From NCBI GenBank assembly GCA_021732845.1, contig JAKFUF010000160.1, positions 1-34,609 of the forward strand: a stretch of DNA of 34,609 nucleotides. The letters run 5' to 3'. The notes beneath the pieces are model-generated. The model was not told the DNA's origin. It ran no database searches and saw only the letters and a program-made list of their open reading frames with translations. Below, piece after piece: positions 10,203-30,607 of the stretch. Positions within the stretch are counted from its first letter, which is position 1, and each line of letters opens with the position of its first letter. The translations under genes were made by a program, and so were the position numbers. This DNA comes from Planctomycetaceae bacterium. GTDB lineage: Bacteria > Planctomycetota > Planctomycetia > Planctomycetales > Planctomycetaceae.

Positions 10203-10709
10203 TCAGCCATTTTGTGCGGCCCAGAAAGCCAGGTACTCCCGCTGATATTTTTCCCTCTGATGTGATCGGTCCACCGGGAACTGGGTCCACGGCAAGACGT
10301 AATCTTCACGCTCCGCCACGATCATTAGATAGCTGAAATCCGGCAGGGCCAGCACGTACCGCCATTCGCCCCGGCGCTCGTTCTTCCACCAGACGATTCG
10401 ATCGCCTTCCGCTGGGCGTCGATTCGCAAAGGCTTCCATCGCGGGGCGTGGCCAACGGATCCGCTGGCAGCGGGCCATGTCTGGCAGCCGATCCGCCTCA
10501 GTGCTGCCTTCCGAGATGAAGTGCCAAAAGGTCGCCTCCTTGCCCTGAATGACAGGGTGGCGTTTGATGCCCACGCGCTTGCCAGGCCACGCAGGCTTGG
10601 ACTGAAGAAAGTCCGCGGTAAACCACTCATAAAGGACATTTTCATAGGCCTTCCAGTCGCCGGCGGAATCCACCAGAAGGACCAGGGGCGGCAACCAATC
10701 CTCATTCAT
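10203..10709 (-). CDS. Hypothetical protein coupled to DUF3800
   Basis: The 168-residue protein starts at the ATG that overlaps the DUF3800 stop by 4 nt (ATGA). The frame is open further upstream but that part lies inside the DUF3800 gene. It is rich in Trp, Arg and acidic residues with no membrane segment. Recognisable patches are VLLVDSAGDWKAYENVLYEW near residues 10-30 and the middle segment RIVWWKNERRGEWRYVLALPDFSYLMIV. I do not recognise a family. The tight coupling to DUF3800 argues for a joint role, for example as partner, regulator or substrate-delivery protein, but nothing in the sequence shows which. Confidence 0.75.
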   Translation of the reverse strand: MNEDWLPPLVLLVDSAGDWKAYENVLYEWFTADFLQSKPAWPGKRVGIKRHPVIQGKEATFWHFISEGSTEADRLPDMARCQRIRWPRPAMEAFANRRPAEGDRIVWWKNERRGEWRYVLALPDFSYLMIVAEREDYVLPWTQFPVDRSHQREKYQREYLAFWAAQNG

Positions 10710-11416
10710 GCCACCCGTCCCCGCTGGGCCTGCCACATGAAAAGATTGAACTTTGGCTCGCGCAGCAATGTGGACCGAGACAGCGAATAGCCCGTCCGCT
10801 CCTTGATCCGGGCCACCAACGCGCTCTTGGCCGCACTCCCGTTCAAGCCACGGCTCACATAGCCAACCGCGCCCAGCAGGAAGTCGGTCAGTTGAAGCTG
10901 CTCGACCGCGTCAGACTCCACCACCTGCAGGCGTTCGACGATTTCGCGGTTGAAGTCGTACAGGTTGTTGCACAGCACATCGTGGAGCCTGGCCACCTTT
11001 TGCGCGCTCCGCGTGTCCTTCTTGTCGAGATAGATGTGAAACCTGGCCTCCGGTGTCAGCAGCGGTTCCAGCAGGCCGAACATCATCTTGTAGTACCAGT
11101 CATCATGTGACTGGCCGAAATCGGCGTGCCGCAAATTCCCCTTCTGCGCCACCCAGGCGCGGAAATGCAGCTCGTCGTCCTCGAAAAATGCGTTGAGCAC
11201 CTCCATGTAGTACGCCAGCTTCGCAGGCGACACTTTGGACCATTTCAGCTCGAAGTCGGCCGCCAGCCCATGCTTGGATTTGATCTCGCGCAGCCGAATC
11301 GCGCTGTTCCGCGCATGCTCCTGCGAACACCATACCGTGCCGAGCGCCATCACCGGGTGATGGTCGTTCTCCAAGTGGCAGCTTTCATCACAGTACAGGT
11401 TGACGACGTGGCTCAT
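10706..11416 (-). CDS. DUF3800 domain protein
   Basis: The 236-residue protein begins MSHVVNLYCDESCHLEN, the typical DUF3800 N-terminus. It carries the conserved acidic residues D10, E11, D131 (YLDKKDTR) and D178 (QLTDFLLGAVGYV), spaced as in the RNase H-like fold proposed for the family. I prefer the ATG at 11416 because family members start just before the YxDES motif; the frame is open to 11575 but that extension has no family match. The function of DUF3800 proteins is not established; they are common near phage-defence genes. The downstream gene overlaps by ATGA, forming a two-gene unit on minus. The intergenic region 11417-11677 has no gene I can support. Confidence 0.85.
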   Translation of the reverse strand: MSHVVNLYCDESCHLENDHHPVMALGTVWCSQEHARNSAIRLREIKSKHGLAADFELKWSKVSPAKLAYYMEVLNAFFEDDELHFRAWVAQKGNLRHADFGQSHDDWYYKMMFGLLEPLLTPEARFHIYLDKKDTRSAQKVARLHDVLCNNLYDFNREIVERLQVVESDAVEQLQLTDFLLGAVGYVSRGLNGSAAKSALVARIKERTGYSLSRSTLLREPKFNLFMWQAQRGRVA

Positions 11417-11677
11417 GGGTGGCGTCCGCTCCAAGTCACGGTCTGGGAAGTGGAACATGCTTGAGCTGAAACCGGATCCATTCGACAGACTCCCGCACTG
11501 ACATGACTCTGTCCAGTGGCTAGCCTGCATGGACTTCGCAGAACTTCCGCTGGTTCCATTCCGCCGCGATCGCACGACGCTGCTGCCGCGTTCCGTCGTC
11601 GGAAATGGATTTCAACGGCAAACCGCCGTGCGGTCAATCAATCCCTGCCCTCTTTCAGCCCCCGCACCGAGGCTCAC

Positions 11678-14481: not shown

Positions 14482-15096
14482 ATGGCAAAATTTGAAGTCG
14501 AAATGGAACTCCAAGGGTTTAAGCTGAGAATCAAAGCTCAGCGAGAGGAAGACGTCCCGCGGATCGTCGGCCAGATTAGCCAGCAAATGGCCGGTTTGGT
14601 ATCTCCCAGTGGCGCAATGCTGGAAGCCACTCCACGGCTCGGTTCGGTTGCCAGAGTGCAGGAGCTGCCTGCGCAGGAGCATTCCGAGGAGGAGAAAGGG
14701 AAAGCACGCGGGAAATCGACTCGGCGGCGTAGTGTGGCAGAATCTGCAAAGACGCAAGCGATAACGTGGCGGCATAATCCTGAAAGGTGGGGAACGCCAA
14801 AGCAGTCGTGGACGGCGGCCAAAAAGATTCTGTGGATAATGTACGTCATTAGCCACGAGTCAACACATTCCGAGGTCAGCGGCCCAGTCATCGCTGAGAC
14901 ATTCAATAGCGCGTTCCGTCAATCTGGCCCGCTGCACAAGCCCAGCATGCCTCGAGATCTTGGATCTCTGAAAACTCGGTCTCCGGCAAACGTGATGGAT
15001 GATGCCACGAAATCTCCGATCGCATGGTTCTTGACCGATGAAGGCAAAAAAGAAGCTGAGAAGCTCGTGGCTGAGGCAAAAACGGCACAACCATAA
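14482..15096 (+). CDS. Unknown protein with C-terminal predicted winged helix
   Basis: The 204-residue protein has a beta-alpha start (FEVEMELQGFKLRIKAQREE, residues 4-23, then VPRIVGQISQQMAG). A charged linker near 65-90 is rich in Lys/Arg and Glu. The C-terminal part (about 95-200) has a predicted winged helix with the common ending WFLTDEGKKEAEKLVAEA. I do not recognise the family. ATG 14482 follows GAGG by about 7 nt. The next gene starts 9 nt after this stop, so the two form an operon. The paired protein also ends in a predicted winged helix. A role in DNA binding or regulation, possibly in a defence module, is inference. Confidence 0.65.
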   Translation: MAKFEVEMELQGFKLRIKAQREEDVPRIVGQISQQMAGLVSPSGAMLEATPRLGSVARVQELPAQEHSEEEKGKARGKSTRRRSVAESAKTQAITWRHNPERWGTPKQSWTAAKKILWIMYVISHESTHSEVSGPVIAETFNSAFRQSGPLHKPSMPRDLGSLKTRSPANVMDDATKSPIAWFLTDEGKKEAEKLVAEAKTAQP

Positions 15097-15105
15097 GGGG
15101 ATGGC

Positions 15106-15888
15106 ATGGCGTTGATCGATAATCAGACCATGGTGAAGCGGCTTGTGCCACCGCTCGATCTTTTCCTCGCGGAGCAACTCGTTGAGGAGTTCGTAAAGCT
15201 TGAGCGGCGGTATATCCTAAGGGATTGGGAGCCAGCAGAATTGGATGGCGGACGCTTCTCCGAAATCCTTGCCCGCGTTCTCTATCATCAAGATTCGTCT
15301 AATCTCGATCTAGCGCGGGATTTTGGAGACTGCGGCAAATACATACATAACGATAATGTGCCGCATGCAATCAATCGCGAAGAAGCAAAAATGATCTTTA
15401 TGGTATTGACGGTGGTCCATAAATTTCGAAGCAAGCGAGGCGTCTGCCACGTTTCCCCTACATATACCGCGAATCACATGGATGCCCGTTATATGATGGA
15501 AGCAGTTCGTTGGAGCATGGTTGAAGCACTCCGAATATTCTGGAGAAATGACCGTGATGCTGCCGCTCGAGCTATTAGCGAATTGCTGCGGTTTGATGTG
15601 CCATGCGTTGGTCGCTTTGAGGAAGCAGTCGTAGTCCAGCGAACAGACTTACGACCCGAGGAGGAACTTCTCGTGCTACTCCATCACGCTGGCGAATCGG
15701 GGTTTAGCAGACGAGAGTTGGGTAAATATGCGATGCGCAACCCGCCGGCAATTACCAAGGCGCTTGATAGTTTGACATCGCCAATGCAACGGGCAGTGGT
15801 CTGCCTCGCGGATGGTCGATTTGTCCTCACAGACCTCGGGCACAAGTATTTGAGGGAACAGCTGGCAGCCAAGCTACTTCTTGAGTAG
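15106..15888 (+). CDS. HEPN-like helical protein with C-terminal winged helix
   Basis: The 260-residue protein is helical in its first 160 residues, then has a predicted winged helix (about 183-252) ending GRFVLTDLGHKYLREQ. Near residues 108-115 the segment RSKRGVCH fits the R-x(6)-H spacing allowed for HEPN ribonucleases, and DARYMMEAVRWSMVEALRIFW follows, as in proteins with an RGVGH-type motif. HEPN domains often act as RNases in abortive infection and toxin systems, but the match here is by eye. The gene follows the 204-residue gene by 9 nt and its stop lies 67 bp before the preferred HNH start, so the three genes may be one transcript. Confidence 0.6.
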   Translation: MALIDNQTMVKRLVPPLDLFLAEQLVEEFVKLERRYILRDWEPAELDGGRFSEILARVLYHQDSSNLDLARDFGDCGKYIHNDNVPHAINREEAKMIFMVLTVVHKFRSKRGVCHVSPTYTANHMDARYMMEAVRWSMVEALRIFWRNDRDAAARAISELLRFDVPCVGRFEEAVVVQRTDLRPEEELLVLLHHAGESGFSRRELGKYAMRNPPAITKALDSLTSPMQRAVVCLADGRFVLTDLGHKYLREQLAAKLLLE

Positions 15889-15955: not shown

Positions 15956-16888
15956 TTGTCATCAAATATCCCGTCTATCTCACCCAATTTCGTCACATCC
16001 TGCCTGCGCCGCCTGACCAGTCTCCGGGTTTACAAGGCAATCCACGGCGAAGCTCCGCACAAGCCGTTGCTTTTGCTGGTGCTGATCGAATTGGCGGAAC
16101 AGGGTGCATTGCCGGCTGACCGGCTGTGGCTCACGCCGGAGTTGTCCTACCGGTTCGACACCTACTGGGACGTGGTGGCGTATCGTCGCCCGCAGAAGTC
16201 CGACATTCGTTTGCCATTTCATCACTTGAGTGGCGATGGGCTGCTGTCGCCCTTTACGGAATCGGGAGTTCCTTCGACGGATACCAAGCTCACGCGGTAT
16301 GTTTGCATCGATCCGGAGTTCCTTGCCGCCGCCAGTGACGCCGGATTTCGCGAGCAGGCTCGGCGATACCTGATTGCCCGGTACTTCCAGCCGGCGGAGC
16401 GAAATGCGCTGTACAATCTCGTGGGAATGCCGATCCCGTCGGAGGATCAGGACGTTGCTGACGCCAGCTTTGTGGTGCCGGATGACGCGGCGGCGATCGG
16501 ACGTCAGGCACGATTTCGACTGAATATTGTGGCTGCGTACAACTACACCTGCGCTTTGACGCGCTACCGCGTCACCACGATTGGATCCGGGGCGATTGTC
16601 GATGCGGCGCACATTCACGAGTTCGCCGCATCCCGCAACAACGATCCGGCCAATGGCTTGGCCCTCTGCAAGAATGCTCACTGGCTGTTCGACGTGGGGC
16701 TGTGGAGCATCGACAATGAGTACCGCATTCTTGTGGCAAAGGGTGAATTCGACGAGTCGGCCCCAGAGCAGACTCCATTGATCGCGATGCACGGCAAAAC
16801 ATTGTACCTCCCAGCCAATCTGCAGCTCTGGCCAGATCCGGTTCATATGGCGTGGCATCGAAAGAATCGGTTTGTCGGCAGGGTTTGA
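15956..16888 (+). CDS. HNH endonuclease of the phosphorothioate-dependent (ScoMcrA-like) type
   Basis: From TTG 15956 the protein is 310 residues. The N-terminal half resembles the sulfur-binding domain of ScoMcrA-type type IV restriction enzymes: APHKPLLLLVLIELAEQG (33-50) and IRLPFHHLSGDG (84-95). The C-terminal half is an HNH nuclease with CALTRYRV, DAAHIHEF (H219), DPANGLALC (N233) and HWLFDVGLW (H242). Such enzymes bind phosphorothioated DNA and cut near it. The frame is open to TTG 15881; I prefer 15956 because GGAG lies about 10 nt upstream, but the start is uncertain. The gene converges with the dndB paralogue (12-bp gap) beside a full Dnd cluster. Its N-terminal family call is by eye. 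Confidence 0.8.
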   Translation: MSSNIPSISPNFVTSCLRRLTSLRVYKAIHGEAPHKPLLLLVLIELAEQGALPADRLWLTPELSYRFDTYWDVVAYRRPQKSDIRLPFHHLSGDGLLSPFTESGVPSTDTKLTRYVCIDPEFLAAASDAGFREQARRYLIARYFQPAERNALYNLVGMPIPSEDQDVADASFVVPDDAAAIGRQARFRLNIVAAYNYTCALTRYRVTTIGSGAIVDAAHIHEFAASRNNDPANGLALCKNAHWLFDVGLWSIDNEYRILVAKGEFDESAPEQTPLIAMHGKTLYLPANLQLWPDPVHMAWHRKNRFVGRV

Positions 16889-16906
16889 GTGAAGCGCGGT
16901 TCACTC
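16887..16906. terminator. Hairpin GAGTGAA / TTCACTC between convergent genes
   Basis: Seven perfect base pairs enclose a 6-nt loop (GCGCGG). The hairpin spans the end of the HNH gene stop and the stop of the dndB paralogue, so it could end both transcripts. There is no clear T-tract. Confidence 0.4.
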
Positions 16907-17968
16907 TTCCATCGCCCGTTCCTCCCGCGTCAGCTTCAGCCCCAAATGCAGCTTCACCGCGTTCCCGGCGCGGGCGACGGCGGAGTTGGACTTTGAGAGG
17001 CGGCTGCCGATCATGGCGCGGCCTTCCCAGAGGGCGGCGTTGGACCGGGACCAGTCGAGCGAGCCGAGTTTCTTGATTCGCTTTTGCCACGCTGTGGGGC
17101 ATTGGTTGAAGAGGGCGCGGCCGGCGCGGGCGATGGCGGCGATGCCAATGGCGTGGCAATGGACATAGCCTGAGCGGATCTCGGCGGCGGAAGTGTCGCC
17201 GTGGACGAGTTCGGCCCAGGCGGGGATCTGGGCGGCGACTTCGCCCCAGAACTCCGTCGCGAGGTTCAGGCGGTCGGCGTAGGGTGTGTCCTTGAGGTCG
17301 GCCAGCAGGAGTTGGTTGGCCTGATAGAGGGCACTCAAGGTGAACAACTTGCGGGAGCGGTTCGAGATCGCGGTCTTCTCCAGTTCGATCGCGTTCACGA
17401 ACACTGGTACAGCCTCGATCAGCTCCCGCGTGACGCGGGCGATCTCGTCGCGGTCGTCCAGCCCGATGCGGAGAGACTTGGCAGACGAGCGTTCGTGACG
17501 TTTCACATCGCTGTAGATATGACCACGACGGGAGCCGTCCGGATCGACATGAATCAACATCGCGATAGAGTCATCGCCAAGAGATGCGCACTCCTTCAGG
17601 GCACGTTGCAGGCCGTAGATGCGGTGGATGCCATCGACGATGATCAGGCGGGATTCCAGCGGAATCAGCAGTTCTCCCGCCGAGATGCGGTACTTGCCGC
17701 TGGAGGCGACGAAGCGAACCTTGTTTTCAATCGAGATGGTCACCGCGGCGAGGTGAAAGTCTTTGGGGTCTGCGAGGATTTCGCGGGCAATCTCGCGGAC
17801 CCGCGCGGGCACCGCCTTGCGAAACACTTGCGGCGCATCGCTCGTGCTCGCCTCGACACCAACCGGGAACAGCCGTGGCAGCAGGCCAATGGGGCACATC
17901 GCCGTGTAGAAGGCATGGCCACCCTGCATCCCCCGGATTGCGGGGAGGCTAAACTCCAAACCAGCCAT
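16901..17968 (-). CDS. Second DndB paralogue with DGIHR motif
   Basis: The 355-residue protein aligns with the plus-strand DndB along its length: MAGLEFSLPAIRGMQGGHAFY at the start, MCPIGLLPRLF, DGIHRIYGLQRAL (112-124), TAISNRSRKLFTLSAL, and LGSLDWSRSNAALWEGRAM near the end. The family hallmark DGQHR is DGIHR here. ATG 17968 begins one base after the dndA stop (TGA-A-ATG), which fixes the start and shows an operon; the frame is open further up inside dndA. DndB proteins regulate dnd transcription and PT modification level in studied systems. A second, divergent copy next to dndA may be a regulator with its own target, or a subunit variant; this is inference. Confidence 0.88.
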   Translation of the reverse strand: MAGLEFSLPAIRGMQGGHAFYTAMCPIGLLPRLFPVGVEASTSDAPQVFRKAVPARVREIAREILADPKDFHLAAVTISIENKVRFVASSGKYRISAGELLIPLESRLIIVDGIHRIYGLQRALKECASLGDDSIAMLIHVDPDGSRRGHIYSDVKRHERSSAKSLRIGLDDRDEIARVTRELIEAVPVFVNAIELEKTAISNRSRKLFTLSALYQANQLLLADLKDTPYADRLNLATEFWGEVAAQIPAWAELVHGDTSAAEIRSGYVHCHAIGIAAIARAGRALFNQCPTAWQKRIKKLGSLDWSRSNAALWEGRAMIGSRLSKSNSAVARAGNAVKLHLGLKLTREERAMEE

Positions 17969-17969
17969 T

Positions 17970-19382
17970 TCACTCCGACGCAACGAGAGGGTTAAGGGCA
18001 AGTATGATATTGAGGGCGCTTCTGAAACGGACGAGCCGCAGTTTCGCGTCAGGACCGAAGGATATCCGAATCGCACTGTCGATTCTTCCATCGTCCAACC
18101 CCATTGCTGTCAGCACATGACTCGGCTTGTAACTCGCCGACGTGCATGCCGAACCATTGCTCACGGCGATCAGATTCTTGGTGGACATCATGAAAGCTTC
18201 GCTGTCGAGACCGGGGAAGCTGACATTCAGCACATGCGGCTGGCAGCGGGCGGGGTCGCCGTTGATGTGGTGGTCGACGCGGGCGAGGTCGCGCAGGAGT
18301 TGCTCGCGCAGGCGGAGGGCGGCGGTGCGGCGGGTGGGCCATTCCAGGGCGGCCAGGCGCGTGGCTTCGCCCAGGCCGACGGCGAGAGCCACGGGAACGG
18401 TGCCGGGACGCAGGCCGCGTTCCTGTCCGCCGCCGAACTGCAGCGGTTGGACCGGGCGCTTTTGTGAGCCACGTCGTCGGACGAGCAGTGCCCCGATCCC
18501 CTGCGGGCCGTAAATCTTGTGGCTGCTGACGGAGACCATGTCGGCCTTCAACCGCTTCAGCGCCTCGACCTCCTTGCCGAACGTCTGGGCCGCGTCGGTG
18601 TGGAACAGTGTGTCTGAGCCACGCAGGAGGGTGGCGATCTCTTCGACCGGCTGCAGGATGCCGGTTTCGTTGTTGGCGTGCATCACGCTGACCAGCAGCG
18701 TGTCGGGCCGCAGCAGCCGCTGGATGGTGGCCGGCTCGACGTAGCCACCGGACGTGACTGGCGCGAGGTCGACTGCAAACCCCAACTGCGTCATCCGCTC
18801 CAGGGGCTCCAGGACCGCCTTGTGTTCAATCGCCGTGGAAATGATGTGCTTGCGGCCAGTGCGTTCGCCATGCTCGGCCAGGCCGAGAATCGCCAGGTTG
18901 TTGCTCTCCGTGGCTCCACTGGTGAAGAACACCTCCTCGGGCTGAGCCCCCAGCATGTCAGCCACCTGCCGCCGCGCGTTCTCGACCGCCTCCTTCGACT
19001 TCTGCCCGTAACTGTGCGTCCGGCTCCCGGCATTGGAGGGCGTGAGAAACCACGGCAGCATGACTTCCAGCACGCGCGGATCGAGCGGCGTGGTCGCGTT
19101 GTAATCCAAATAGAGCGGATCGGAATGGGCTTGGGTCCAGGCGCGAATCTCGTCGCTCGTCCCGCAGTATTGGCCGACCCCGCCGATTCGCACCTTGTTG
19201 ACAATCGGGGGCGCAGCGCGTGGCTCACGGATCGTCAGCCGGAACGAAGCCACAGTGGTTCCGTCCGGTGCCTCCACCACCCCCGATTCCTGCCCGTGGT
19301 CGCCGTCGCAAACAGTGACCTCATGGCCGGGAAAACTGCGCCGCACGCGGTCGAGCGCCTCGTTGTAAGGGATGGGGGGCAT
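17970..19382 (-). CDS. dndA: DndA cysteine desulfurase with an N-terminal extension
   Basis: The 470-residue protein is an IscS/NifS-type desulfurase from about residue 89 (DPLYLDYNATTPLDPRV). It has the PLP lysine K289 in VSSHKIYGPQG and the catalytic cysteine C413 in AVSNGSACTSASYKPSHVL, with RISFG at 439-443. It supplies sulfur to DndC in the Dnd pathway. The family is normally about 380-400 residues, so the first about 88 residues are extra: a compact domain with SFPGHEVTVCDGDHG, VASFRLTIREP and VRIGGVGQYCGTSDEIRAW. I cannot name this domain. The start is the ATG at 19382; no strong ribosome site precedes it. It is transcribed away from dndB and shares a transcript with the dndB paralogue. 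Confidence 0.93.
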   Translation of the reverse strand: MPPIPYNEALDRVRRSFPGHEVTVCDGDHGQESGVVEAPDGTTVASFRLTIREPRAAPPIVNKVRIGGVGQYCGTSDEIRAWTQAHSDPLYLDYNATTPLDPRVLEVMLPWFLTPSNAGSRTHSYGQKSKEAVENARRQVADMLGAQPEEVFFTSGATESNNLAILGLAEHGERTGRKHIISTAIEHKAVLEPLERMTQLGFAVDLAPVTSGGYVEPATIQRLLRPDTLLVSVMHANNETGILQPVEEIATLLRGSDTLFHTDAAQTFGKEVEALKRLKADMVSVSSHKIYGPQGIGALLVRRRGSQKRPVQPLQFGGGQERGLRPGTVPVALAVGLGEATRLAALEWPTRRTAALRLREQLLRDLARVDHHINGDPARCQPHVLNVSFPGLDSEAFMMSTKNLIAVSNGSACTSASYKPSHVLTAMGLDDGRIDSAIRISFGPDAKLRLVRFRSALNIILALNPLVASE

Positions 19383-19467
19383 TGTCGATTTTCGATTTTT
19401 GATTTTCGATTGGTCGTGTGGCAGAACCTGATTTCAGAGCGATCGCAGCCATTGGCTTCAACAAATG

Positions 19468-19531
19468 AGCCGGCACGCGTTAGCGTCCGGTTCGGGCGGC
19501 GTTGCAAACCGGACGCTAACGCGTGCCGGCT
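19468..19531. repeat. Perfect 25-bp inverted repeat in the dndA/dndB gap
   Basis: Arms at 19468-19492 and 19507-19531 are perfect complements (they begin AGCCGGCACGCGTTAGCG and end CGCTAACGCGTGCCGGCT) around a 14-nt loop. It looks like a mobile palindromic repeat, a class frequent in planctomycete intergenic DNA, here between divergent dnd genes. It could also terminate or insulate the two transcripts. Confidence 0.9.
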
Positions 19532-19649
19532 GATGGAGGAAATTGTTGGACACAAATGCACTCGCTGGCGTGTCGGGCTGATATGTCGGAGCAACACCCG
19601 CGCACGGTCAGCCACCAGTCGAAAACCCGCCTCCACGGTATCCGATGGG

Positions 19650-19705
19650 TTGACTCTTTGGAAGTTAAATGCATAGTGGTTGGAAGTGAAACATTTCACT
19701 TCCAA
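19650..19705 (+). promoter_or_regulatory. Putative dndB promoter with repressor-like operator
   Basis: TTGACT (19650-19655), 16 bp, then CATAGT (19672-19677) resembles a sigma-70 promoter. Just downstream lies a perfect palindrome with 12-bp arms, TTGGAAGTGAAA-CA-TTTCACTTCCAA (19680-19705). A second half-site TTGGAAGTTAAA (19658-19669; one mismatch to the left arm) sits inside the promoter spacer, exactly 22 bp upstream of the left arm, about two helical turns. This is the layout of a repressor operator that would block RNA polymerase. The regulator is not known; DndB or its paralogue are candidates by analogy. Not experimentally shown. Confidence 0.6.
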
Positions 19706-19717
19706 CAATGGTTTGCC

Positions 19718-20806
19718 GTGGCCAGTTTCGAGTACCATTTTCCGTCGATCCGCGGTGTCCAGGCGGGGCGGGAGTACTACGTTTCGATGTGCCCGCTGCG
19801 GCTGATTCCGCGGATCTTCCTGTTCGACGAAGAGGAGCTGCGGCCGGAGCTGCGGGCACAGCGGGTGCTGAACAAGCAGCGGATCCCCGAGATGGCGCGG
19901 TACATCAGCGCCAACACCACGGACTACACCTTCTCGGCCCTGACCGCCTCAATCGACGGGCGGGTGAAGTTCGAGGCTCTGGGCGACCCGGCGGCCGAAC
20001 GCAGCCTGGGCACGCTGCGCGTGCCGATGAACGCCAAGTTCGTCATCAACGACGGCCAGCACCGCCGCAAGGCGATTGAAGTCGCCCTGCATGACCACCC
20101 CGACTTGGGCGACGAGACGATTGCCGTCGTGTTCTTTGTCGATGTGGGGCTCAAACGCTGCCAGCAGATGTTTGCCGATCTGAACCGCCACGCGGTCCGA
20201 CCCACGCCCTCGCTGGGGCTGTTGTATGACCACCGGGATTTGGGAGCCACGCTCGCCAAGGATGTGATGGAGCGGGTGCCGGTGTTCAACGGGCTGACCG
20301 AGGTGGAGCGCAGCACGATCTCCAACCGGTCGATCAAGCTGTTCACGCTGAGCGGGATCCACAACGCCACGCAGGCCCTGCTGCAGGGGCTGGACTTGAA
20401 ATCGCACGAGGCACTGGCCAGCCTGGCGGCTGAGTACTGGAACGAGGTCAGCCGGCACATGCCCGACTGGCTGCTGGCGAAAGACCGGAAGATCAGCGCG
20501 GCCGACCTGCGGCGGGACTTTATTCATGCCCACACGCTGGCCCTGGCCGCACTGGCCCGCGTGGGCCACACGCTGTTATCGCAGCACCGCAGCGAGTGGA
20601 AGGCGCGGCTCAAACCGCTGGGGTCGCTCGACTGGTCGCGCGAGAACGCCGCCCAGTGGGAAGGGCGGGCGATGAACGCCGGCCGGCTGTCGAAAAAAAG
20701 CATCAACGTGACGCTGACGGGCAACCTGATCAAGCAGCACCTCGGGCTGCCCCTGACCGCCGATGAGCAGTCGCTCGAATCGAAACTGAAGAGGAGGGCG
20801 AAATGA
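19718..20806 (+). CDS. dndB: DndB, DGQHR-domain protein
   Basis: The 362-residue protein has the DndB/DGQHR signature VINDGQHRRKAIEVAL (DGQHR at 112-116). It also has MCPLRLIPRIF (24-34), STISNRSIKLFTLSGIHNATQALL and LGSLDWSRENAAQWEGRAMN. DndB controls dnd expression and influences PT level; it is dispensable for the modification itself in studied species. I place the start at GTG 19718 (VASFEYHFPSIRGVQAG), because this lines up with the start of the paralogue (MAGLEFSLPAIRGMQGG), although the frame is open to 19523. No clear Shine-Dalgarno precedes it. The dndC start overlaps the stop by 4 nt. Confidence 0.92.
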   Translation: MASFEYHFPSIRGVQAGREYYVSMCPLRLIPRIFLFDEEELRPELRAQRVLNKQRIPEMARYISANTTDYTFSALTASIDGRVKFEALGDPAAERSLGTLRVPMNAKFVINDGQHRRKAIEVALHDHPDLGDETIAVVFFVDVGLKRCQQMFADLNRHAVRPTPSLGLLYDHRDLGATLAKDVMERVPVFNGLTEVERSTISNRSIKLFTLSGIHNATQALLQGLDLKSHEALASLAAEYWNEVSRHMPDWLLAKDRKISAADLRRDFIHAHTLALAALARVGHTLLSQHRSEWKARLKPLGSLDWSRENAAQWEGRAMNAGRLSKKSINVTLTGNLIKQHLGLPLTADEQSLESKLKRRAK

Positions 20807-22356
20807 GCGCCGCGCCGGCCATGAACAACAACTCGGCGTTTGCGGAGATGGGGCTCGCCAAAACCGTCAAGGCGGTCTGCGACGAGATTCGCGAACTGTA
20901 CCTGTGGGATCAGATTCCGTGGGTCGTCGGCTACAGCGGCGGCAAGGACTCCAGCGCCGTCCTGCAACTGATCTGGCTGGCTCTCAAAGAACTGCCGCCC
21001 GAGCAGCGGCGCAAGCCGGTGCATGTCATCTCCACGGACACACTGGTCGAGCAGCCCGTGGTCGCGGCCTGGGTCACGGCGTCACATCTGAAGATGAAGG
21101 CCGCCGCGGCCGAACAGGGGATGCCGATCACCCCGCACAAGTTGACGCCCGACGTGAAGGACACCTTCTGGGTCAACCTGATTGGCAAGGGCTACCCCGC
21201 GCCGCGCAAGCTGTTCCGCTGGTGTACCAGCCGGATGAAAATCAACCCGTCGAACAACTTCATCCGCGACGTGGTGCGGGAAAGCGGCGAGGCGATTCTG
21301 GTGTTGGGAACCCGCAAGGCCGAAAGCCAGCGGCGGGCACTCAACATGGCAAAGCTGGAAACCAAGCGCGTCCGCGAACGGCTGACCCCCAACAAAAGCC
21401 TGCCGAATTCGCTGGTCTACACGCCGATTGAGGACTGGACCAACGACGACGTGTGGCTCTTCCTGATGCAGGTCAAAAACCCCTGGGGACACACCAACAA
21501 GTCGCTGCTGGGGATGTATCAGGGAGCCTCCGCCGACGGCGAGTGCCCCCTGGTGGTGGACACCACGACGCCCAGTTGCGGCAACAGCCGCTTCGGCTGC
21601 TGGGTCTGCACAGTGGTCGACAAAGACCGCTCGATGGAGGCCATGATCAAGAATGACGATGAAAAAATCTGGATGATGCCGTTGTTGGAACTGCGGAACG
21701 ATCTGGGGGATTTTTCCAAAGAGAAGGAACGCCGCGACTACCGACGAATGAGCGGGCGCGTGCAACTGTTTCATGACAGCGTCGTCCGCGGTCCCTACAC
21801 CAAGGAGTCGCGGGCATACTGGCTGCGGCGCGTGTTCGAGGCCCAGCGCGATCTGCGGCAACTGGGGCCGGACGAGTTTCGCGACATTGAGCTGATCTCG
21901 ATGCCGGAACTGCACGAGATTCGCCGGATCTGGCTTTACGAGAAACACGAATTCGACGACAGCCTGCCGAAGCTCTATCAGGAAGTCTTCGACGAGGCAC
22001 TGCCGGTGACGGCCTCGGATGACAACCTGCTGCGGGCGGAGGACTGGTCGATTCTGCAGGAAGTCTGCGGCGAAGATCAGGAGTTCTTCCAACTGCAGGC
22101 GAGCCTCCTGGACATCGAACGGGAGTTTCGCGGGATGTCCCGGCGGGCGGGCATCTACGAAGCACTCGATGACCGGCTGCGGGCCGGACAGTACAGCAAC
22201 GAATTAGAGGCGCTGGCCATTCGGAACGATGAAGAGGATCGACGCAATGAGATCGACAAGGATGTGGAATCGGCGAGCGTCATTCAACGGGTGTTGTTTG
22301 AAGCAAGTGCTGCGGAGGAGGACACGGCCGGCGGATCAGTAGAAATGTCCTCATGA
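20803..22356 (+). CDS. dndC: DndC, PP-loop ATPase/sulfurtransferase with iron-sulfur cysteines
   Basis: The 517-residue protein carries the PP-loop SGGKDS (45-50) in VVGYSGGKDSSAVLQLIW. Cysteines C141 (FRWCTSRMK), C248, C259, C266 and C269 (SCGNSRFGCWVCTVVDKDRSM) provide likely iron-sulfur ligands. The family is related to PAPS reductases and tRNA thiolases and is thought to activate the DNA backbone and pass on sulfur from DndA. The ATG overlaps the dndB stop by 4 nt. The dndD start overlaps its stop by 4 nt. Size is typical. The last 60 residues are acidic and less conserved. Confidence 0.95.
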   Translation: MSAAPAMNNNSAFAEMGLAKTVKAVCDEIRELYLWDQIPWVVGYSGGKDSSAVLQLIWLALKELPPEQRRKPVHVISTDTLVEQPVVAAWVTASHLKMKAAAAEQGMPITPHKLTPDVKDTFWVNLIGKGYPAPRKLFRWCTSRMKINPSNNFIRDVVRESGEAILVLGTRKAESQRRALNMAKLETKRVRERLTPNKSLPNSLVYTPIEDWTNDDVWLFLMQVKNPWGHTNKSLLGMYQGASADGECPLVVDTTTPSCGNSRFGCWVCTVVDKDRSMEAMIKNDDEKIWMMPLLELRNDLGDFSKEKERRDYRRMSGRVQLFHDSVVRGPYTKESRAYWLRRVFEAQRDLRQLGPDEFRDIELISMPELHEIRRIWLYEKHEFDDSLPKLYQEVFDEALPVTASDDNLLRAEDWSILQEVCGEDQEFFQLQASLLDIEREFRGMSRRAGIYEALDDRLRAGQYSNELEALAIRNDEEDRRNEIDKDVESASVIQRVLFEASAAEEDTAGGSVEMSS

Positions 22357-24368
22357 TTTTGCAGCAACTGACCCTGCGCAACTTCGGGCTGTACTGCGAC
22401 GAACATCTGTTCGACCTGGCCCCGGCGGTCAAGCGGCAGCGCGTCGCACCGATCATCCTTTTTGGCGGGATCAACGGCGGCGGCAAAACCACGATCCTGG
22501 ACGCCATTCAACTGGTGCTCTATGGCAACCGCGCGCGCTGTTCGAAGCGCGGTGACAAGGCCTACGACGATTTCCTGAGGGAGTCGATCCATCACGGCGT
22601 GGATCCGGCGATGGGCGCGGCCATCCAGCTTTGCTTCCGCTTTGCCGCCGAAGGCGAAGAGCATCTGTATGAAGTCACACGCGCCTGGTCCGTGGTGCGC
22701 GACCGGGTGAAGGAACGGGTCGAAGTTCAGAAAGACGGCGAACCCGATGGTTGGCTGTCGGAAAACTGGAATCAGGTGGTCGAAGAGCTGATCCCGTTTG
22801 GCATTGCCCAGCTTTGTTTCTTCGATGCCGAGAAAATCCGCTTCCTGGCCGAGGATGAAACCAGTTCAGCAGCGCTGGGATTGGCGATTAAATCGCTACT
22901 GGGATTGGACCTGGCCGAACGCCTCGTGGCGAATGCTGGCACATTGGAGGCCCGGCTCGCCCGAAAGACCCGCAAATCGCCCGACTTGGAGGAAGCCACG
23001 CGTCTGGAGACGGCGTTGAAGCAAAAGCAGGACGAAATTGAACGGGTGCAATTGGAAAAGGGTGCCGTCGAGAATCCGCGTCAGCGGGCAACGAAGCGGT
23101 TGAAAGATGCCGAGGAGGCGTTCGCCAAGGTGGGCGGCAAGCTTTGGAAGCAGCGCGAACAGCTCACAAAGCGCCGCGGTGAACTGGAGTTTCAACTTCG
23201 CGCCTGCCAAGAACGGCTGGTGACACTGTCGGCCAGCGAACTGCCGCTGGTCCTGGTGGCCGGGTTGGTCGACGATGTTTCGACGCAGGTGCATCAGGAG
23301 ACGATGGCGAGCGAAACGGACATTATCACCCGGCTGCTGACGAAGCGTGACGAGAAACTGCTGGCACTGCTGAAGCACGAGAAAGTTCGAGGCGAAGTCG
23401 TGCAGCGGGTGGCCACATTTCTGGACGCGGAGCGTCCGCAAAAGGGAGTTGGAAGCAAGCCACGGCTGCGGCTTTCGGACAGCGCACGGCGGGGGCTGGA
23501 ACACCTGCTTGCGCGGGGGCTCAAGGAGCATCGAGAAACCGCCACACAGTTGCTCGCGGAACTGGACAAGGGGCGCAGAGAGTTGGAGCAGGTTCAGCGG
23601 AGCCTGGCCGCGACACCGGACGAAGAGGCGCTGCACGGCGTCTCCGAGGAACTGAAAGCCGCGGCGAGTGACACTGCCGAATTGAACCAGCAGGCAGTCC
23701 GGCTGGAGAAGCAACTCGAAGCCCTTGTCGCTGAACGCGGGGAGATCAACGAGCGCTTGAAAAAACTGCAGCGGAAGGTGCTCGACGAGCAGATTCAATC
23801 CGAAGAGGGAGGCCGCATGGCCGCGCTACTGCAGCGGACACAGGGGACGATGAAGCAGTTCCTGCGGTTGGCCACGCATCGCAAGATCGACCGGCTGTCG
23901 GGGCTGGTGTCCGATTGTTTTCGGTATCTGCTGCGGAAGAAGACGCTCGTGCAGCGGGTGTTGATCGCCCCCGATACGTTCGCCATCACGCTCGTGGATG
24001 ATTCTGGCCGCACGGTGGCGAAGGAGCGGCTGTCCAAGGGAGAAAAGCAGATCTTTGCCATTTCGGTGCTGTGGGGGTTGTCGCAGGCGTCGGCGCGGCC
24101 GCTGCCGGCGATCATTGACACGCCAATGGCCCGGTTGGACGTGGCTCACCGCCGGCAGCTTGTCGAGAAGTATTTTCCCCGCGCGAGCCACCAGGTGATC
24201 ATCCTGTCGACCGACACGGAGATCGAGCGGAACTACTTTCACGAACTGCAGCCCCACATCGCCCGCGCCTATCACCTGAACTACGACGAAGCCCGCAAAC
24301 GGACGGTCGCCACCGAGGGGTATTTCTGGGACGCCGAGCCACGGGCGGAGGGGTCGGAAGGAGCTTGA
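22353..24368 (+). CDS. dndD: DndD, SMC/Rad50-like ATPase
   Basis: The 671-residue protein has Walker A FGGINGGGKTTILDAIQLVLYG (38-47 core) near the N-terminus. A long coiled-coil-rich middle (about 190-510) is rich in Glu, Lys and Arg. The signature LSKGEKQIFAISVLWGL lies near 558-575 and Walker B LPAIIDTPMARLD near 584-596. DndD is the ATPase of the Dnd complex and probably opens or nicks the DNA so DndC and DndE can act. ATG and stop overlap the neighbours by 4 nt each, so dndBCDE is one coupled operon. No CxxC zinc-hook is visible, which is normal for DndD. Confidence 0.95.
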   Translation: MILQQLTLRNFGLYCDEHLFDLAPAVKRQRVAPIILFGGINGGGKTTILDAIQLVLYGNRARCSKRGDKAYDDFLRESIHHGVDPAMGAAIQLCFRFAAEGEEHLYEVTRAWSVVRDRVKERVEVQKDGEPDGWLSENWNQVVEELIPFGIAQLCFFDAEKIRFLAEDETSSAALGLAIKSLLGLDLAERLVANAGTLEARLARKTRKSPDLEEATRLETALKQKQDEIERVQLEKGAVENPRQRATKRLKDAEEAFAKVGGKLWKQREQLTKRRGELEFQLRACQERLVTLSASELPLVLVAGLVDDVSTQVHQETMASETDIITRLLTKRDEKLLALLKHEKVRGEVVQRVATFLDAERPQKGVGSKPRLRLSDSARRGLEHLLARGLKEHRETATQLLAELDKGRRELEQVQRSLAATPDEEALHGVSEELKAAASDTAELNQQAVRLEKQLEALVAERGEINERLKKLQRKVLDEQIQSEEGGRMAALLQRTQGTMKQFLRLATHRKIDRLSGLVSDCFRYLLRKKTLVQRVLIAPDTFAITLVDDSGRTVAKERLSKGEKQIFAISVLWGLSQASARPLPAIIDTPMARLDVAHRRQLVEKYFPRASHQVIILSTDTEIERNYFHELQPHIARAYHLNYDEARKRTVATEGYFWDAEPRAEGSEGA

Positions 24369-24733
24369 AGCAGATCCGCCTCTCGGCACAGGCGAAGGAA
24401 CAACTGATCCGGCTGAAGACGCGGACGGGAATTTCCCAATGGAACATCCTGTGCCGCTGGGCGTTCTGCCTGTCGCTGGCGGAGCCGATGCCACCGACCC
24501 CGATTGAAATCCCCGCCGACAGCAACGTCGAAATGAGCTGGACGGTGTTCGGCGGAGACTTTCATGAATTGTATTTCGCCCTGCTGACGGAACGCACGGT
24601 GCAGGATGGAATCGAGATCGCGCCCGAGAATCTGAGCCGCCAGTTCCGGCTGCACCTGCACCGCGGCATCGGATATCTGGCCACGCCGAACAAGGTGCGG
24701 TCAATTGGCGATCTGGTGGGTCTCGTGCGCTGA
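24365..24733 (+). CDS. dndE: DndE
   Basis: The 122-residue protein fits the DndE family: MKQIRLSAQAKEQLIRLKTR at the start, GISQWNILCRWAFCLSLAEP, then the conserved FGGDFHELYFALLTERTVQDG and SRQFRLHLHRGIGYLA. DndE binds nicked DNA and is essential for PT modification. The start is a TTG overlapping the dndD stop (TTGA), as part of the coupled operon. The last 33 bases overlap in convergent orientation with the esterase gene. Confidence 0.93.
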   Translation: MKQIRLSAQAKEQLIRLKTRTGISQWNILCRWAFCLSLAEPMPPTPIEIPADSNVEMSWTVFGGDFHELYFALLTERTVQDGIEIAPENLSRQFRLHLHRGIGYLATPNKVRSIGDLVGLVR

Positions 24734-27853: not shown

Positions 27854-28048
27854 AAATTTCATGCGTGATTTCCGTCCACTAAAAAGTCCGCCGCTTCATC
27901 GTGGAATCTAGCCGACAGTTCGACGCCGCCAAACAGACTGTGAAATTTTAAATCTGAAATTTGAAATTACTTAGACCATAAGTCCGGCCACGTCGGTCAA
28001 GCCACCGGATTGCTGGAAAGAACGCAGCGTCCCGCCCCGAGTTTTCGC

Positions 28049-30607
28049 ATGTCGTCTGCCAGCGAATCTGCTTCGCCACCGTCCCGCGATGAACTCGCGC
28101 TCAAGTACCTCGAACTGCTCCCCTACGAACCGTATCCGGTGCAGGAACGGGCACTCTTCGCCTATTTCGAATCCGATGAGGGGGTGCTGGTTTGTGCGCC
28201 CACGGGAACCGGCAAGACGCTGATCGCCGAGGCGGCGGCCTTTGAAGCGCTGACCACCGGTTCGATCGTCTACTACACCACGCCGCTGATCGCGCTGACC
28301 GATCAGAAGTTTTTGGAGATGCAGGACGCCGCCGAGCGGTGGGGGTTCAAGCGGGAAGACGTGGGCCTGGTCACCGGCAACCGCCGCGTGAACCCGGACG
28401 CCAAGGTCCTGGTGGTCGTGGCTGAGATTCTGTTAAACCGTCTGCTGCAGCCGGACGCGTTCGACTTCAACAGTGTTTCCGCTGTCGTGATGGATGAGTT
28501 CCACAGCTTTGCCGACCCCGAGCGGGGTATCGTCTGGGAATTCACGCTGTCGCTCCTGCCGCGGCACATCCGGTTGCTGCTGCTCTCGGCCACGGTGGGG
28601 AACGCGGTCGAGTTTTTGGGGTGGCTGCGGGTGAGCCACAAGCGGAGTCTGGAACTGGTGCAGAGCAGCGACCGCAAGGTGCCGCTGCTGTTCCAGTGGG
28701 TGGCCGACAAGATGCTGACGGAGCATCTGGAGGAGATGGCGCAGGGAGACGCGGAAACACGCCGCACACCGGCCCTGGTGTTCTGCTTCAACCGCGATGA
28801 ATGCTGGTCGGTGGCGGAAGAACTCAAGGGCAAGTCGATGCTGGCGGAGGGTCAGCAAAAGCAGCTTGTGACCCTGTTGAACGGTTACGACTGGACGAAG
28901 GGCGTGGGCCCAAAGCTCAAACAGATCCTGATGCGCGGCGTCGGTGTGCATCATGCGGGGCTGCTGCCCAAGTATCGGCGAATTGTCGAGACTCTGTTTC
29001 AGAAGAAGCTGCTGTCGATCTGCGTCTGCACCGAGACCCTGTCGGCGGGAATCAATCTGCCGGCCCGCTCGGTCGTGCTGCCTTCTCTGCTCAAGGGGGC
29101 TCCTGGCCGGCAGAAGATCATCGATGCCAGCTCGGCCCACCAGATTTTTGGGCGTGCCGGGCGGCCGCAGTTCGACAAGCAGGGCTATGTCTACGTGCTG
29201 CCGCATGAAGACGATGTCCGCATTCTGCGGTGGAAGGAGAAGTACGATCAGATCCCGGAGGACACGAAGGATCCGGGGCTGATGAAGGCCAAGAAGGCGA
29301 TGAAGAAGAAGATGCCGACGCGGAGCCAGACGCGGCAGTATTGGAACGAGGCCCAGTTCGACAAGGTGCGGGTCGCTCCACCGCGGGACCTGATCAGCCA
29401 GGGTCCGCTGCCGTGGCGGATGCTCGCATACATGCTGCAGATCTCGCCGGATGTCGAGCGCGTGCGGCAACTGGTTCACAAGCGGTTGATGGAACCCAAG
29501 CAACTGCAGCAGGCGGAAAAGCATCTGCACCAGATGCTGCTGACACTGCATGCGCTGGGCGTGGTCAAGCTTCAGCCCGACCCTCCGCTACCGCCGGAAG
29601 AGCAGCCTGCGGAAGCCACCCCTGCGGCGGACGCCCCGCCCGCGCCGGCCAAGCGTTCGGTGATGGCTCAACTCATTCTTGAGGCTTTGCAGACCCAGCA
29701 CGAAGCCACGGGCACGGGGCCGGTCCCGGTTGATCTGCATCCGACAGCGGAGGCTGAGTACCGGCCGGAGTATGCGTATCCGACCGAACGGATGATGGAC
29801 TTTTTCCAGTTTCGCAGCATCAACCCGGTGTTCGCGTTGTTCCTACTGGATCAGATGGCGATTGCCGATCCGCACGAGCGGCTGCTGGCGTTCGAGAGCG
29901 TGCTGGAGTTGCCGAAGTCGCTCATCCGCTATGTCCGCGTGCCGAACTACGAACGGATGCCGGCCGGTTCGCTGGCCCGCAACAAGGTGGACATTGAGCT
30001 GGTGGCGCGGGGCTTGATCCCTGCGGGCGACCTGTATCCCGCGTGGGATCCGGACATCCCCTTCGAAGAGCGCAAATACGCTCCGACGCTGGGCGAAAAG
30101 CTGCGGATGCTGTTCGAAGCCGAATATCCCAACGTGCATGGCGTGTTTGTCCAGCCGGTCTGGGCGGCGGGCGACCTCTTGGAGTTTGGCGGCGACTTTC
30201 AAAACTACATCGGCGGTCGGGACCTGACCAAGCAGGAGGGCCTGCTGTTCCGGCACCTGTTGCGGCTGATTCTGCTCTTGGGCGAGTTCGCGGAGGTTGT
30301 GCCGCCGGGCATGGAGGGCGCGGCCTGGCGCGCGGAGCTGCGTGACTGGGCCGACAAGTTCACCGCAACCTGCCACGCCGTCGACCCCAAGAGCACGGAG
30401 AGTACTCTGGCGCACGCTGTCGACCGGGATCTGGTCGTCAAGGAAGCGGAAATCGCCGTGGCCACCGCGGAAGACGTCGCCCATCCCCCGGTGGTGCCGG
30501 TGCCGGCAACTGTTGCCGTTGGTGAGGGAGAGTCTGTCACTCAACCGGAACCAGAACCTGAGCCACTGGCAGATGACTTTGGGGCGGAGATTCTGGATTC
30601 GGAATAG
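28049..30607 (+). CDS. Ski2-like DExH RNA helicase
   Basis: The 852-residue protein is a Ski2/Mtr4-type superfamily 2 helicase. It has Walker A APTGTGKT (50-57), DEFH (149-152), SAT (180-182), a [17 protein letters not shown] segment, and QIFGRAGRP (motif VI with the two arginines). It has no signal peptide or membrane helix. The C-terminal half (about 440-850) includes a winged-helix-like part and an acidic Pro-rich tail. Such helicases unwind RNA in processing or decay; the partner is unknown. ATG 28049 is preferred; the frame is open to 28010. It follows the repeat-rich gap after the NYN gene. Confidence 0.9.

What the first reader, a model, noticed from the sequence alone, without database searches (positions are those of the whole stretch)
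15956..24733. PT-dependent HNH endonuclease beside a full Dnd phosphorothioation cluster
The sequence shows dndA and dndBCDE together with an HNH enzyme whose first half resembles the sulfur-binding domain of ScoMcrA-type enzymes, which cut phosphorothioated DNA. A cell that makes PT and carries a PT-cutting enzyme should damage itself. The enzyme may instead read a different PT context or respond to absent PT, as some PT-sensing restriction proteins do, or it may be inactive or tightly controlled. The genes converge with a 12-bp gap, so they are linked.
Basis: partly seen in the sequence, partly recalled or inferred. Interest (0 to 1): 0.85.

Follow-up and report, generated by a model that had tools for sequence, protein, structure and literature searches.

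The report
Sulfur-reading nuclease tied to DNA-sulfur genes
A bacterium, probably a planctomycete, whose genes should put sulfur into its own DNA carries right beside them an enzyme built to recognise sulfur-marked DNA and cut DNA; a fair share of its relatives repeat this pairing, so the enzyme is probably part of the system rather than an accident.

Summary
Window 15956-16888 encodes an N-terminal sulfur-binding domain (AlphaFold model against SBDHga Z 15.6, SprMcrA 15.3, ScoMcrA 14.1) and an HNH nuclease (TagI Z 14.8), sulfur pocket and catalytic residues intact. Beside it lies a complete dndA-dndE set. No DptH and no DUF262 (DndI/SspE-type) protein was found in this genome.

It is not a lone oddity. 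In the nuclease's clade 14 of 41 genomes searched have dndC, in 13 within 3 kb of this gene, in several layouts; nine of these genomes showed no dndE. In the window, four planctomycete loci, a Chloroflexota plasmid and Nostocales loci the neighbour is a DndB/DGQHR-family gene; in five of six DndB cases the DGQHR motif is altered. Against: 27 of 41 genomes lack dndC.

Best reading: nuclease arm of a Dnd system, perhaps gated by the diverged DndB. A nuclease of this kind in Dnd loci is in print (2024); the DndB pairing and the dndC-nuclease pair were not found in my searches. Nothing was tested biochemically.

The parts
15956..16888 (+). SBD-HNH endonuclease, 310 aa from TTG 15956 (open frame from 15881). 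In 335-aa numbering: sulfur pocket P59 H60 K61 P62, lid L111, base P112; catalytic H244 N258 H267
   Evidence: HNH_2 PF13391 E 1.6e-10; NF045808 104.7 bits, under its cut-off of 180; A3 profile hits PDB SBDs; AlphaFold pLDDT 92.5, SBDs Z 13.3-15.6, TagI HNH Z 14.8; start
16901..18091 (-). dndB' : second, diverged DndB with DGIHR for DGQHR; converges with the nuclease (12 bp). Frame opens at 18091; a start right behind dndA (about 17968) is more likely (inference)
   Evidence: PF14072 E 6.6e-85; TIGR03233 307.1 bits, cut-off 328; groups with other nuclease-side DndBs, SH-aLRT 96; in-frame starts
17970..19382 (-). dndA cysteine desulfurase; SNGSAC motif present; about 90 extra residues at the N-terminus of the frame as called
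   Evidence: TIGR03235 478.6 bits (cut-off 480), matched from residue 91; motif
19523..20806 (+). dndB, canonical DGQHR
   Evidence: TIGR03233 520.7 bits; motif
20803..22356 (+). dndC sulfurtransferase; SGGKDS and CGNSRFGCWVC present
   Evidence: TIGR03183 657.2 bits; motifs
22353..24368 (+). dndD ABC ATPase; GINGGGKTT and LSKGE present
   Evidence: TIGR03185 598.8 bits; motifs
24365..24733 (+). dndE
   Evidence: PF08870 E 5.8e-41, TIGR03184 125.1 bits
15106..15888 (+). unknown 260-aa gene just upstream of the nuclease; not part of the conserved pairing as far as seen
   Evidence: no family; no match over 45 bits in the 80 related loci; own genome plus 2 weaker matches in 343 genomes
14482..15096 (+). 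unknown 204-aa gene upstream of the 260-aa gene
   Evidence: no family; no match over 45 bits in the 80 related loci

Best explanation
The gene encodes a working SBD-HNH nuclease that belongs functionally to the adjacent Dnd phosphorothioation system and is its DNA-cutting arm, in place of DndFGH, DndI or SspE. Proposed mechanism: the SBD docks on the sulfur marks that DndA-E put on host DNA; docking and/or the neighbouring diverged DndB' (a ParB/DGQHR-fold, NTP-binding family) hold or steer the HNH domain so that host DNA is spared and invading DNA is cut. It would be a two-gene counterpart of SspE and DndI, in which a ParB-like sensor and an HNH nuclease are fused. Shown here: domains, intact pocket and catalytic residues, intact Dnd genes, recurrent linkage, the DndB-family neighbour, no DptH or DUF262 match in a 95.7%-complete draft genome. 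Inferred: that the SBD binds PT, that binding restrains rather than triggers cutting, that DndB' is the gate, and that the target is invader DNA. Rough odds: functional coupling to Dnd 0.8; restriction arm of some kind 0.55; gating by DndB' 0.3.
For: Linkage: dndC in 14 of 41 genomes of the clade, within 3 kb of this gene in 13, against 9 of 392 in the phylum (Fisher 2e-10, uncorrected for kinship and for different sampling and E limits). Layouts differ, so it is not one inherited block: nuclease tail-to-tail with dndB' (window, L090, L102); dndB' then nuclease on one strand (L105; L103 with a 140-aa frame between); dndC-nuclease pair (L101, L104, L108-L110, L119, L156). A Chloroflexota plasmid repeats nuclease> <dndB' <dndE <dndD <dndC <dndB. 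In Nostocales the tail-to-tail neighbour is a DGQHR protein, gap 0-10 bp in 14 of 16 loci (one representative typed). DGQHR is changed in 5 of 6 nuclease-side DndBs and in 0 of 16 others that I picked. Pocket kept in 5 of 5 full-Dnd and 8 of 8 dndC-linked clade members with full-length frames. DptH not found, with a positive control; DUF262 not found, 8 of 14 control genomes ringing.
Against: 27 of the 41 clade genomes (drafts) show no dndC and still keep the nuclease, including close relatives L091 and L092, and 21 of 23 unlinked members have the same pocket: the protein can live without Dnd, as a plain PT-cutting enzyme would. One Dnd-linked relative (G361, L074) has lost the start of its SBD. 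In the dndC-only layout a DndB neighbour was seen only in L109 (Pfam) and perhaps L128 (51 bits); tblastn missed L109's, so others may be missed. DGQHR is intact in L090 and in the 14 Nostocales partners where it could be read. Pocket changes do not track linkage: unlinked plasmid relatives have APNKP or APYKP as well. Known SBD-HNH enzymes cut PT DNA rather than spare it (Lutz 2020, passages and two sections read). No activity was measured.
Confidence: 0.5

Rival explanations
1. A plain type IV enzyme: it cuts foreign PT DNA of a motif that the host Dnd does not make, and sits beside dnd because both ride in a defence island.
For: 27 of 41 clade genomes show no dndC; pocket the same in linked and unlinked members; Lutz 2020 offered differing sequence context as one explanation of such neighbours and found them in under 3.6% of cases.
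Against: dndC lies within 3 kb of the gene in 13 of 14 genomes that have it; DndB-family neighbour in three phyla; short stretch at the base-reading loop and basic loop 34 argue for loose reading of PT context (inference from PMC7470945).
Confidence: 0.25
2. A suicide effector: it cuts the cell's own PT DNA when infection or damage removes an inhibitor (DndB' or NTP control), like a toxin held by its neighbour.
For: Known SBD-HNHs cut PT DNA; the nuclease-side DndB differs from the canonical DndB; an SBD-only gene in front of SBD-HNH in some cyanobacteria could shield PT sites. Rakesh 2024 also names suicide action as possible.
Against: No toxin-antitoxin test; most dndC-nuclease pairs showed no DndB neighbour (L109 does); no data on inducibility.
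Confidence: 0.15
3. An inactive or silent gene, tolerated because it is weakly expressed or catalytically poor.
For: TTG start; a decayed copy in G361 and a dndB remnant at the nuclease's tail in L093; Lutz 2020 found its Dnd-linked enzyme Bsp48385I of low activity.
Against: H-N-H and sulfur pocket kept in the 13 linked full-length members counted; ribosome-site-like sequence before the TTG; confident two-domain model.
Confidence: 0.1

Closest known systems
SBD-HNH PT-dependent endonucleases (EcoWI, SprMcrA, Ksp11411I, Bsp305I; NF045808)
   Same: Same two-domain architecture; SBD fold, sulfur pocket and HNH residues.
   Different: 104.7 bits, under the NF045808 cut-off of 180; the stretch holding the base-reading loop is 25 residues here against 31-41 in the other SBD proteins aligned; beside a complete Dnd cluster, which Lutz 2020 counted as rare.
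SBD(wHTH)-SRA-HNH nucleases in Dnd loci (Rakesh, Aravind and Krishnan 2024, PMC10853773)
   Same: SBD-carrying HNH nuclease in Dnd neighbourhoods, there proposed as the restriction component (sections 17 and 24 read).
   Different: No SRA domain here; convergent with a diverged second dndB. The pairing with DndB and the dndC-nuclease pair were not in the passages read; its supplement was not read.
DndI and SspE
   Same: HNH nucleases of PT systems that carry a ParB-like DUF262 domain (section 17 of PMC11662687 read; for SspE otherwise only abstract starts in a listing); DndI is reported to spare PT-marked self DNA.
   Different: Here the PT reader is an SBD, the nuclease domain is HNH_2 and any ParB-like sensor would be the separate neighbour DndB'; no DUF262 match in this genome.
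ScoMcrA
   Same: Same SBD fold (Z 13.3-14.1); HK/HR and P pocket.
   Different: By the papers, ScoMcrA has an SRA domain, a tyrosine lid, an acidic loop 34 and the SRGRR reading loop; here leucine lid, basic loop 34 as I map it, shorter loop stretch.
DndFGH (DptFGH) restriction module
   Same: Partner of DndABCDE for restriction.
   Different: No DptH match in this genome, with a positive control in the same call; DptF and DptG were not searched.

Membership tests
SBD-HNH PT-dependent endonuclease | N-terminal sulfur-binding domain fold | tested here: met
   VIA Z 13.3-15.6 to SBDHga, SprMcrA and ScoMcrA SBDs; next unrelated fold over this part Z 7.7; profile E 6.7e-26 to SBDHga
SBD-HNH PT-dependent endonuclease | sulfur pocket residues (ScoMcrA H116, R/K117, P165) | tested here: met
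   H60, K61, P112; hydrophobic lid L111
SBD-HNH PT-dependent endonuclease | HNH nuclease domain with H-N-H | tested here: met
   PF13391 E 1.6e-10; H244 N258 H267; TagI Z 14.8
SBD-HNH PT-dependent endonuclease | score over the NF045808 curated cut-off | tested here: not met
   104.7 bits against 180
SBD-HNH PT-dependent endonuclease | binds and cuts PT DNA | not testable with these tools
   needs purified protein and PT substrate
Dnd phosphorothioation system | dndA to dndE present and intact | tested here: met
   DndB, C, D, E over cut-off, DndA 1.4 bits under; motifs present
Dnd phosphorothioation system | PT in genomic DNA | not testable with these tools
   needs LC-MS or iodine cleavage
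DndFGH restriction module | DptH/DndH | tested here: not met
   no match in G000 (draft, 95.7% complete), control plasmid 1305.5 bits
DndI / SspE | DUF262 domain | tested here: not met
   PF03235 without a match in the genome, 8 of 14 control genomes ring
ScoMcrA type (SBD-SRA-HNH) | SRA domain between SBD and HNH | tested here: not met
   no SRA hit in Pfam; the SBD-like part (model residues to about 173) is followed by the HNH-like part from about 189

The most novel reading that the evidence does not exclude
Probability: 0.25. Interest if true: 0.8.

Novelty: new variant of a known kind. Interest (0 to 1): 0.6.

Why it matters
Cells that write sulfur into their DNA should not keep an enzyme that cuts sulfur-marked DNA. 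Lutz 2020 set such neighbours aside as rare exceptions; Rakesh 2024 proposed that SBD-SRA-HNH nucleases are the restriction arm. The loci here show a two-domain subfamily that sits beside dndC in about a third of the clade genomes examined (13 of 41) and often next to a DndB-family gene, which gives small cloneable gene pairs for asking whether PT reading triggers or restrains cutting and whether DndB has a role besides repression. If the dndC-nuclease pair makes PT, the usual minimal writer set (DndC, D, E plus a desulfurase) would need revision.

Tried and rejected
Pocket loss as the escape from self-cutting: rejected as a general rule. In 15 loci of a Nostocales clade (dndC in the locus of 13 of them) the pocket histidine is replaced in 14 (AQYKP, ALNKP and the like; L159 keeps it), while 12 of 12 other cyanobacterial loci keep it, and a Dnd-linked Chloroflexota copy has APYKP. 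But unlinked plasmid copies also have APNKP (L180, L192, L193) or APYKP (L195), another unlinked one (L194) keeps the histidine, and the dnd-linked L179 has APHQP; the window clade keeps the pocket whether linked or not. The Nostocales change is one clade, hence at most one event.

The two genes upstream as partners: rejected; neither gave a match over 45 bits in the 80 related loci, and the 260-aa gene matched 3 of 343 genomes including this one.

A weak PDB match to phnF (E 1.1) was ignored. Paper searches; a paper on SBDHga that I recall was not found, so what is said of SBDHga comes from its PDB entry. No paper on a DndB/SBD-HNH pair or a dndC-HNH pair turned up in these five searches; subscription journals are mostly missing there. 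The supplements of Lutz 2020 and Rakesh 2024 could not be read, so overlap with their tables is unknown.

Rows dropped before counts: proteins under 200 residues were left out of the alignment (11: L075, L097, L113, L120, L124, L126, L127, L128, L149, L158, L164); the tree further left out L074, L082, L084, L085, L088, L129, L157 and lengths outside 251-459; its no-Dnd label includes short contigs. In one search, L115 (PHKA) was counted as intact. L093's dndB fragment was dropped from the DndB tree; the 16 comparison DndBs were picked by me (10 plasmid records of the 20 listed, one of them with two DndBs, plus the canonical copy of the Chlorohelix plasmid, the window's own and three from the phylum), and nearby SBD-HNHs were not looked for in the three unannotated ones. 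One search covered 48 of 50 handles sent (two not held) and left out L127, same assembly as L091.
Full report
WHAT IS THERE. The window is a whole contig (C98) of a 9.25-Mb draft genome, 95.7% complete. That it is a planctomycete is inferred from the titles of the nearest relatives of this gene (L090-L093); no call names the host. Open frames at 17970-24733 encode DndA, DndB, DndC, DndD and DndE. Four score above their NCBIfam cut-offs and DndA 1.4 bits under; P-loop, Fe-S cysteine, Walker A and desulfurase cysteine motifs (motif identities recalled) are in place. The HNH gene ends at 16888, 12 bp from the end of dndB'.

THE NUCLEASE. No Pfam SBD model hit it, and NF045808 gives 104.7 bits against a cut-off of 180. 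A profile of 52 proteins (A3) matches the solved SBDs of SBDHga (E 6.7e-26), ScoMcrA (1.3e-10) and SprMcrA (about 1e-5) over the N-terminal part, and TagI (1.5e-9) over the HNH part. The AlphaFold model (pLDDT 92.5, pTM 0.87) aligns to the SBDs of SBDHga (Z 15.6, 135 residues, 2.4 A), SprMcrA (15.3) and ScoMcrA (14.1) and to the HNH of TagI (14.8); the best row outside SBD and HNH nucleases, an ORC winged helix, is at 7.7. Pocket residues named by Liu et al. 2018 (PMC6224610, passages read) correspond to H60, K61 and P112 here, with leucine at the lid; the catalytic residues H244, N258 and H267 are present. Two features bear on specificity. The stretch that holds the base-reading loop is 25 residues in this clade and 31-41 in the other SBD proteins aligned, and ScoMcrA's SRGRR falls in an insertion relative to the profile. 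The stretch I map to loop 34 is net +3; Yu et al. 2020 (PMC7470945, passages read) link a basic loop 34 to relaxed PT context. From this I infer loose reading of PT, not a narrow foreign motif.

OTHER NUCLEASES. The genome gave one DndD and one DndC match, no DptH (with a plasmid as positive control; alone was silent) and no DUF262 protein; DptF, DptG and other PT-linked restriction families were not searched for. Six HNH (PF01844) hits lie elsewhere, and a second NF045808 hit (C83) covers only the HNH part of the profile.

RELATIVES. The tree splits them into the window's clade (35 tree rows, SH-aLRT 100) and a broader, largely cyanobacterial set. In the window's clade I asked 41 genomes for DndC: 14 have it, and in 13 it lies within 3 kb of the nuclease on the same contig (L090, L101-L106, L108-L110, L119, L128, L156); the fourteenth (L118) has a partial DndC not seen in the 10 kb around the nuclease. 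Two of the 13 genomes (G403, G405) have a further DndC match on another contig. In the phylum 9 of 392 genomes have DndC; in four of those nine an SBD-HNH or its remnant lies within 7 kb (G000, G361, G122, G049; G049's dndC is itself truncated), in five none was seen, two of these having dndC at a contig start. Linked and unlinked members are mixed on the tree: starred branches force at least 12 changes of the no-Dnd label over all 75 rows, so linkage has been gained or lost repeatedly, with the caveat that short contigs carry that label too.

LAYOUTS. (A) Full Dnd: nuclease> <dndB' <dndA dndC> in the window, L090 (contig ends after dndC) and L102 (the window has an extra canonical dndB); dndB'> nuclease> divergent from dndC-D in L105 and L103. 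L093 keeps only the tail of a dndB at the same place and no dndC was found in its genome. L105 has a second SBD-HNH directly behind the first, and that one passes the NF045808 cut-off (377.7 bits): a canonical PT-dependent enzyme family member in a Dnd locus. (B) dndC followed at once by the nuclease (from an 83-base overlap to a 15-base gap on the frames as called) in L101, L104, L108-L110, L119 and L156, with L106 (short ATPase between) and L128. In these nine genomes DndE was found in 0 of 9; of the seven others in that call, 3 of 5 planctomycete comparison genomes and both Nitrospirae genomes rang. DndD at E 1e-20 was found in 1 of 9, a 441-aa ATPase at 85.7 bits against a cut-off of 245.85, and in 3 of 3 controls and 0 of 2 Nitrospirae. 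These are draft assemblies. A cysteine desulfurase (DndA/IscS family) lies on the same locus in L104, L106, L109 and L110, a DndB-like gene in L109 and a HerA-like ATPase, under the Pfam cut-off, in L101 and L128. (C) Nostocales: a PbeA match (one representative), dnd_assoc_4 (TIGR04062, one representative), nuclease, a 532-aa DGQHR protein tail to tail with it, then dndC, dndD, dndE. (D) Candidatus Chlorohelix plasmid: nuclease> <dndB' <dndE <dndD <dndC <dndB. Of seven plasmid relatives whose surroundings I looked at, two are dnd-linked (L179, L181) and five are not (L180, L192-L195).

THE DNDB PARTNER. The nuclease-side DndBs of the window, L090, L102, L103 and L105 form one clade (SH-aLRT 96, quick tree) apart from the window's own canonical DndB. 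DGQHR reads DGIHR, DGQHR, DGLHR, DGLYR and DGTYR in these, and FGQNY in the Chlorohelix copy; 16 of 16 other DndBs compared read DGQHR. Fisher 2e-4 ignores kinship; the changes amount to at least two lineages. The Nostocales partner keeps DGQHR in the 14 of 16 loci where the motif could be read. DndB is a ParB-fold family, described as an ATP-dependent repressor; a DndB-like protein bound ATP and GTP in a 2025 survey (PMC12704722, passages read). SspE and DndI carry a ParB-like DUF262 on an HNH nuclease (PMC11662687, section 17). I therefore propose that nuclease and DndB' form a split version of that design; this is inference from gene order and family.

POCKET AND LINKAGE. In the window's clade the pocket is intact in 5 of 5 full-Dnd and 8 of 8 dndC-linked members with full-length frames, and in 21 of 23 unlinked ones (changed: L123, and L129 with a broken frame; L115, PHKA, counted as intact); the Dnd-linked G361 copy (L074) has lost the start of its SBD. 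So linked members have not simply given up PT binding. In a Nostocales clade the histidine is gone in 14 of 15 copies, but unlinked plasmid relatives have lost it too, so the loss does not mark linkage.

WHAT IS KNOWN. Lutz et al. 2020 (PMC7461809; sections 24 and 27 and passages read) reported under 3.6% of SBD-HNHs near dnd genes, and explained them by inactive enzymes or different motifs. Rakesh et al. 2024 (PMC10853773; abstract, sections 17 and 24 and passages read) counted SBD(wHTH)-SRA-HNH in the Dnd locus of 698 taxa and proposed that such nucleases are the restriction component. The window's case is therefore a new variant: no SRA, a distinct clade, a diverged DndB neighbour. Whether these clades lie in either paper's supplement could not be checked.

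VERDICT. The most likely role is the nuclease arm of this Dnd system (0.5), next a plain type IV enzyme (0.25), a suicide effector (0.15) or a silent gene (0.1).

Noticed in passing
L101 8690-10939, L104 1174-3439, L109 2862-5079, L110 101-2366, L156 8653-10882: dndC and an SBD-HNH gene directly joined, with no DndE found in the genome and no full-length DndD: a possible minimal PT writer-reader pair.
   Followed up: partly
L105 8985-10789: Two SBD-HNH genes in tandem beside a full Dnd cluster; the second passes the NF045808 cut-off at 377.7 bits.
   Followed up: partly
L136 9956-10456, L141 3087-3650, L153 8783-9337, L160 642-1211: A stand-alone SBD (no HNH), pocket intact, directly before an SBD-HNH in several cyanobacteria; it could shield PT sites from the nuclease.
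   Followed up: no
L139, L144, L150 and other Nostocales loci, right after the nuclease: A 532-aa DGQHR protein stands tail to tail with the nuclease, gap 0-10 bp in 14 of 16 loci, before the dndCDE genes.
   Followed up: partly
L074 15874-16803: In a same-family genome the SBD-HNH behind a Dnd cluster and a dnd_rel_methyl gene has lost the start of its SBD; two more HNH fragments lie about 170-185 kb away.
   Followed up: partly
L093 4112-5366: SBD-HNH with only the tail of a dndB left at its end and no dndC found in the genome: apparently a Dnd locus that was lost while the nuclease stayed.
   Followed up: partly
window 1919-5023: 1034-aa protein with a Ser/Thr kinase domain and a TIR domain.
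   Followed up: no
window 14482-15888: Two unknown genes in a row just upstream of the nuclease; the second matches only 2 of 342 other genomes, weakly.
   Followed up: partly
window 28010-30607 and 10706-11575: DEAD/DEAH helicase (865 aa) and a DUF3800 protein on the same contig, possibly part of a defence island.
   Followed up: no
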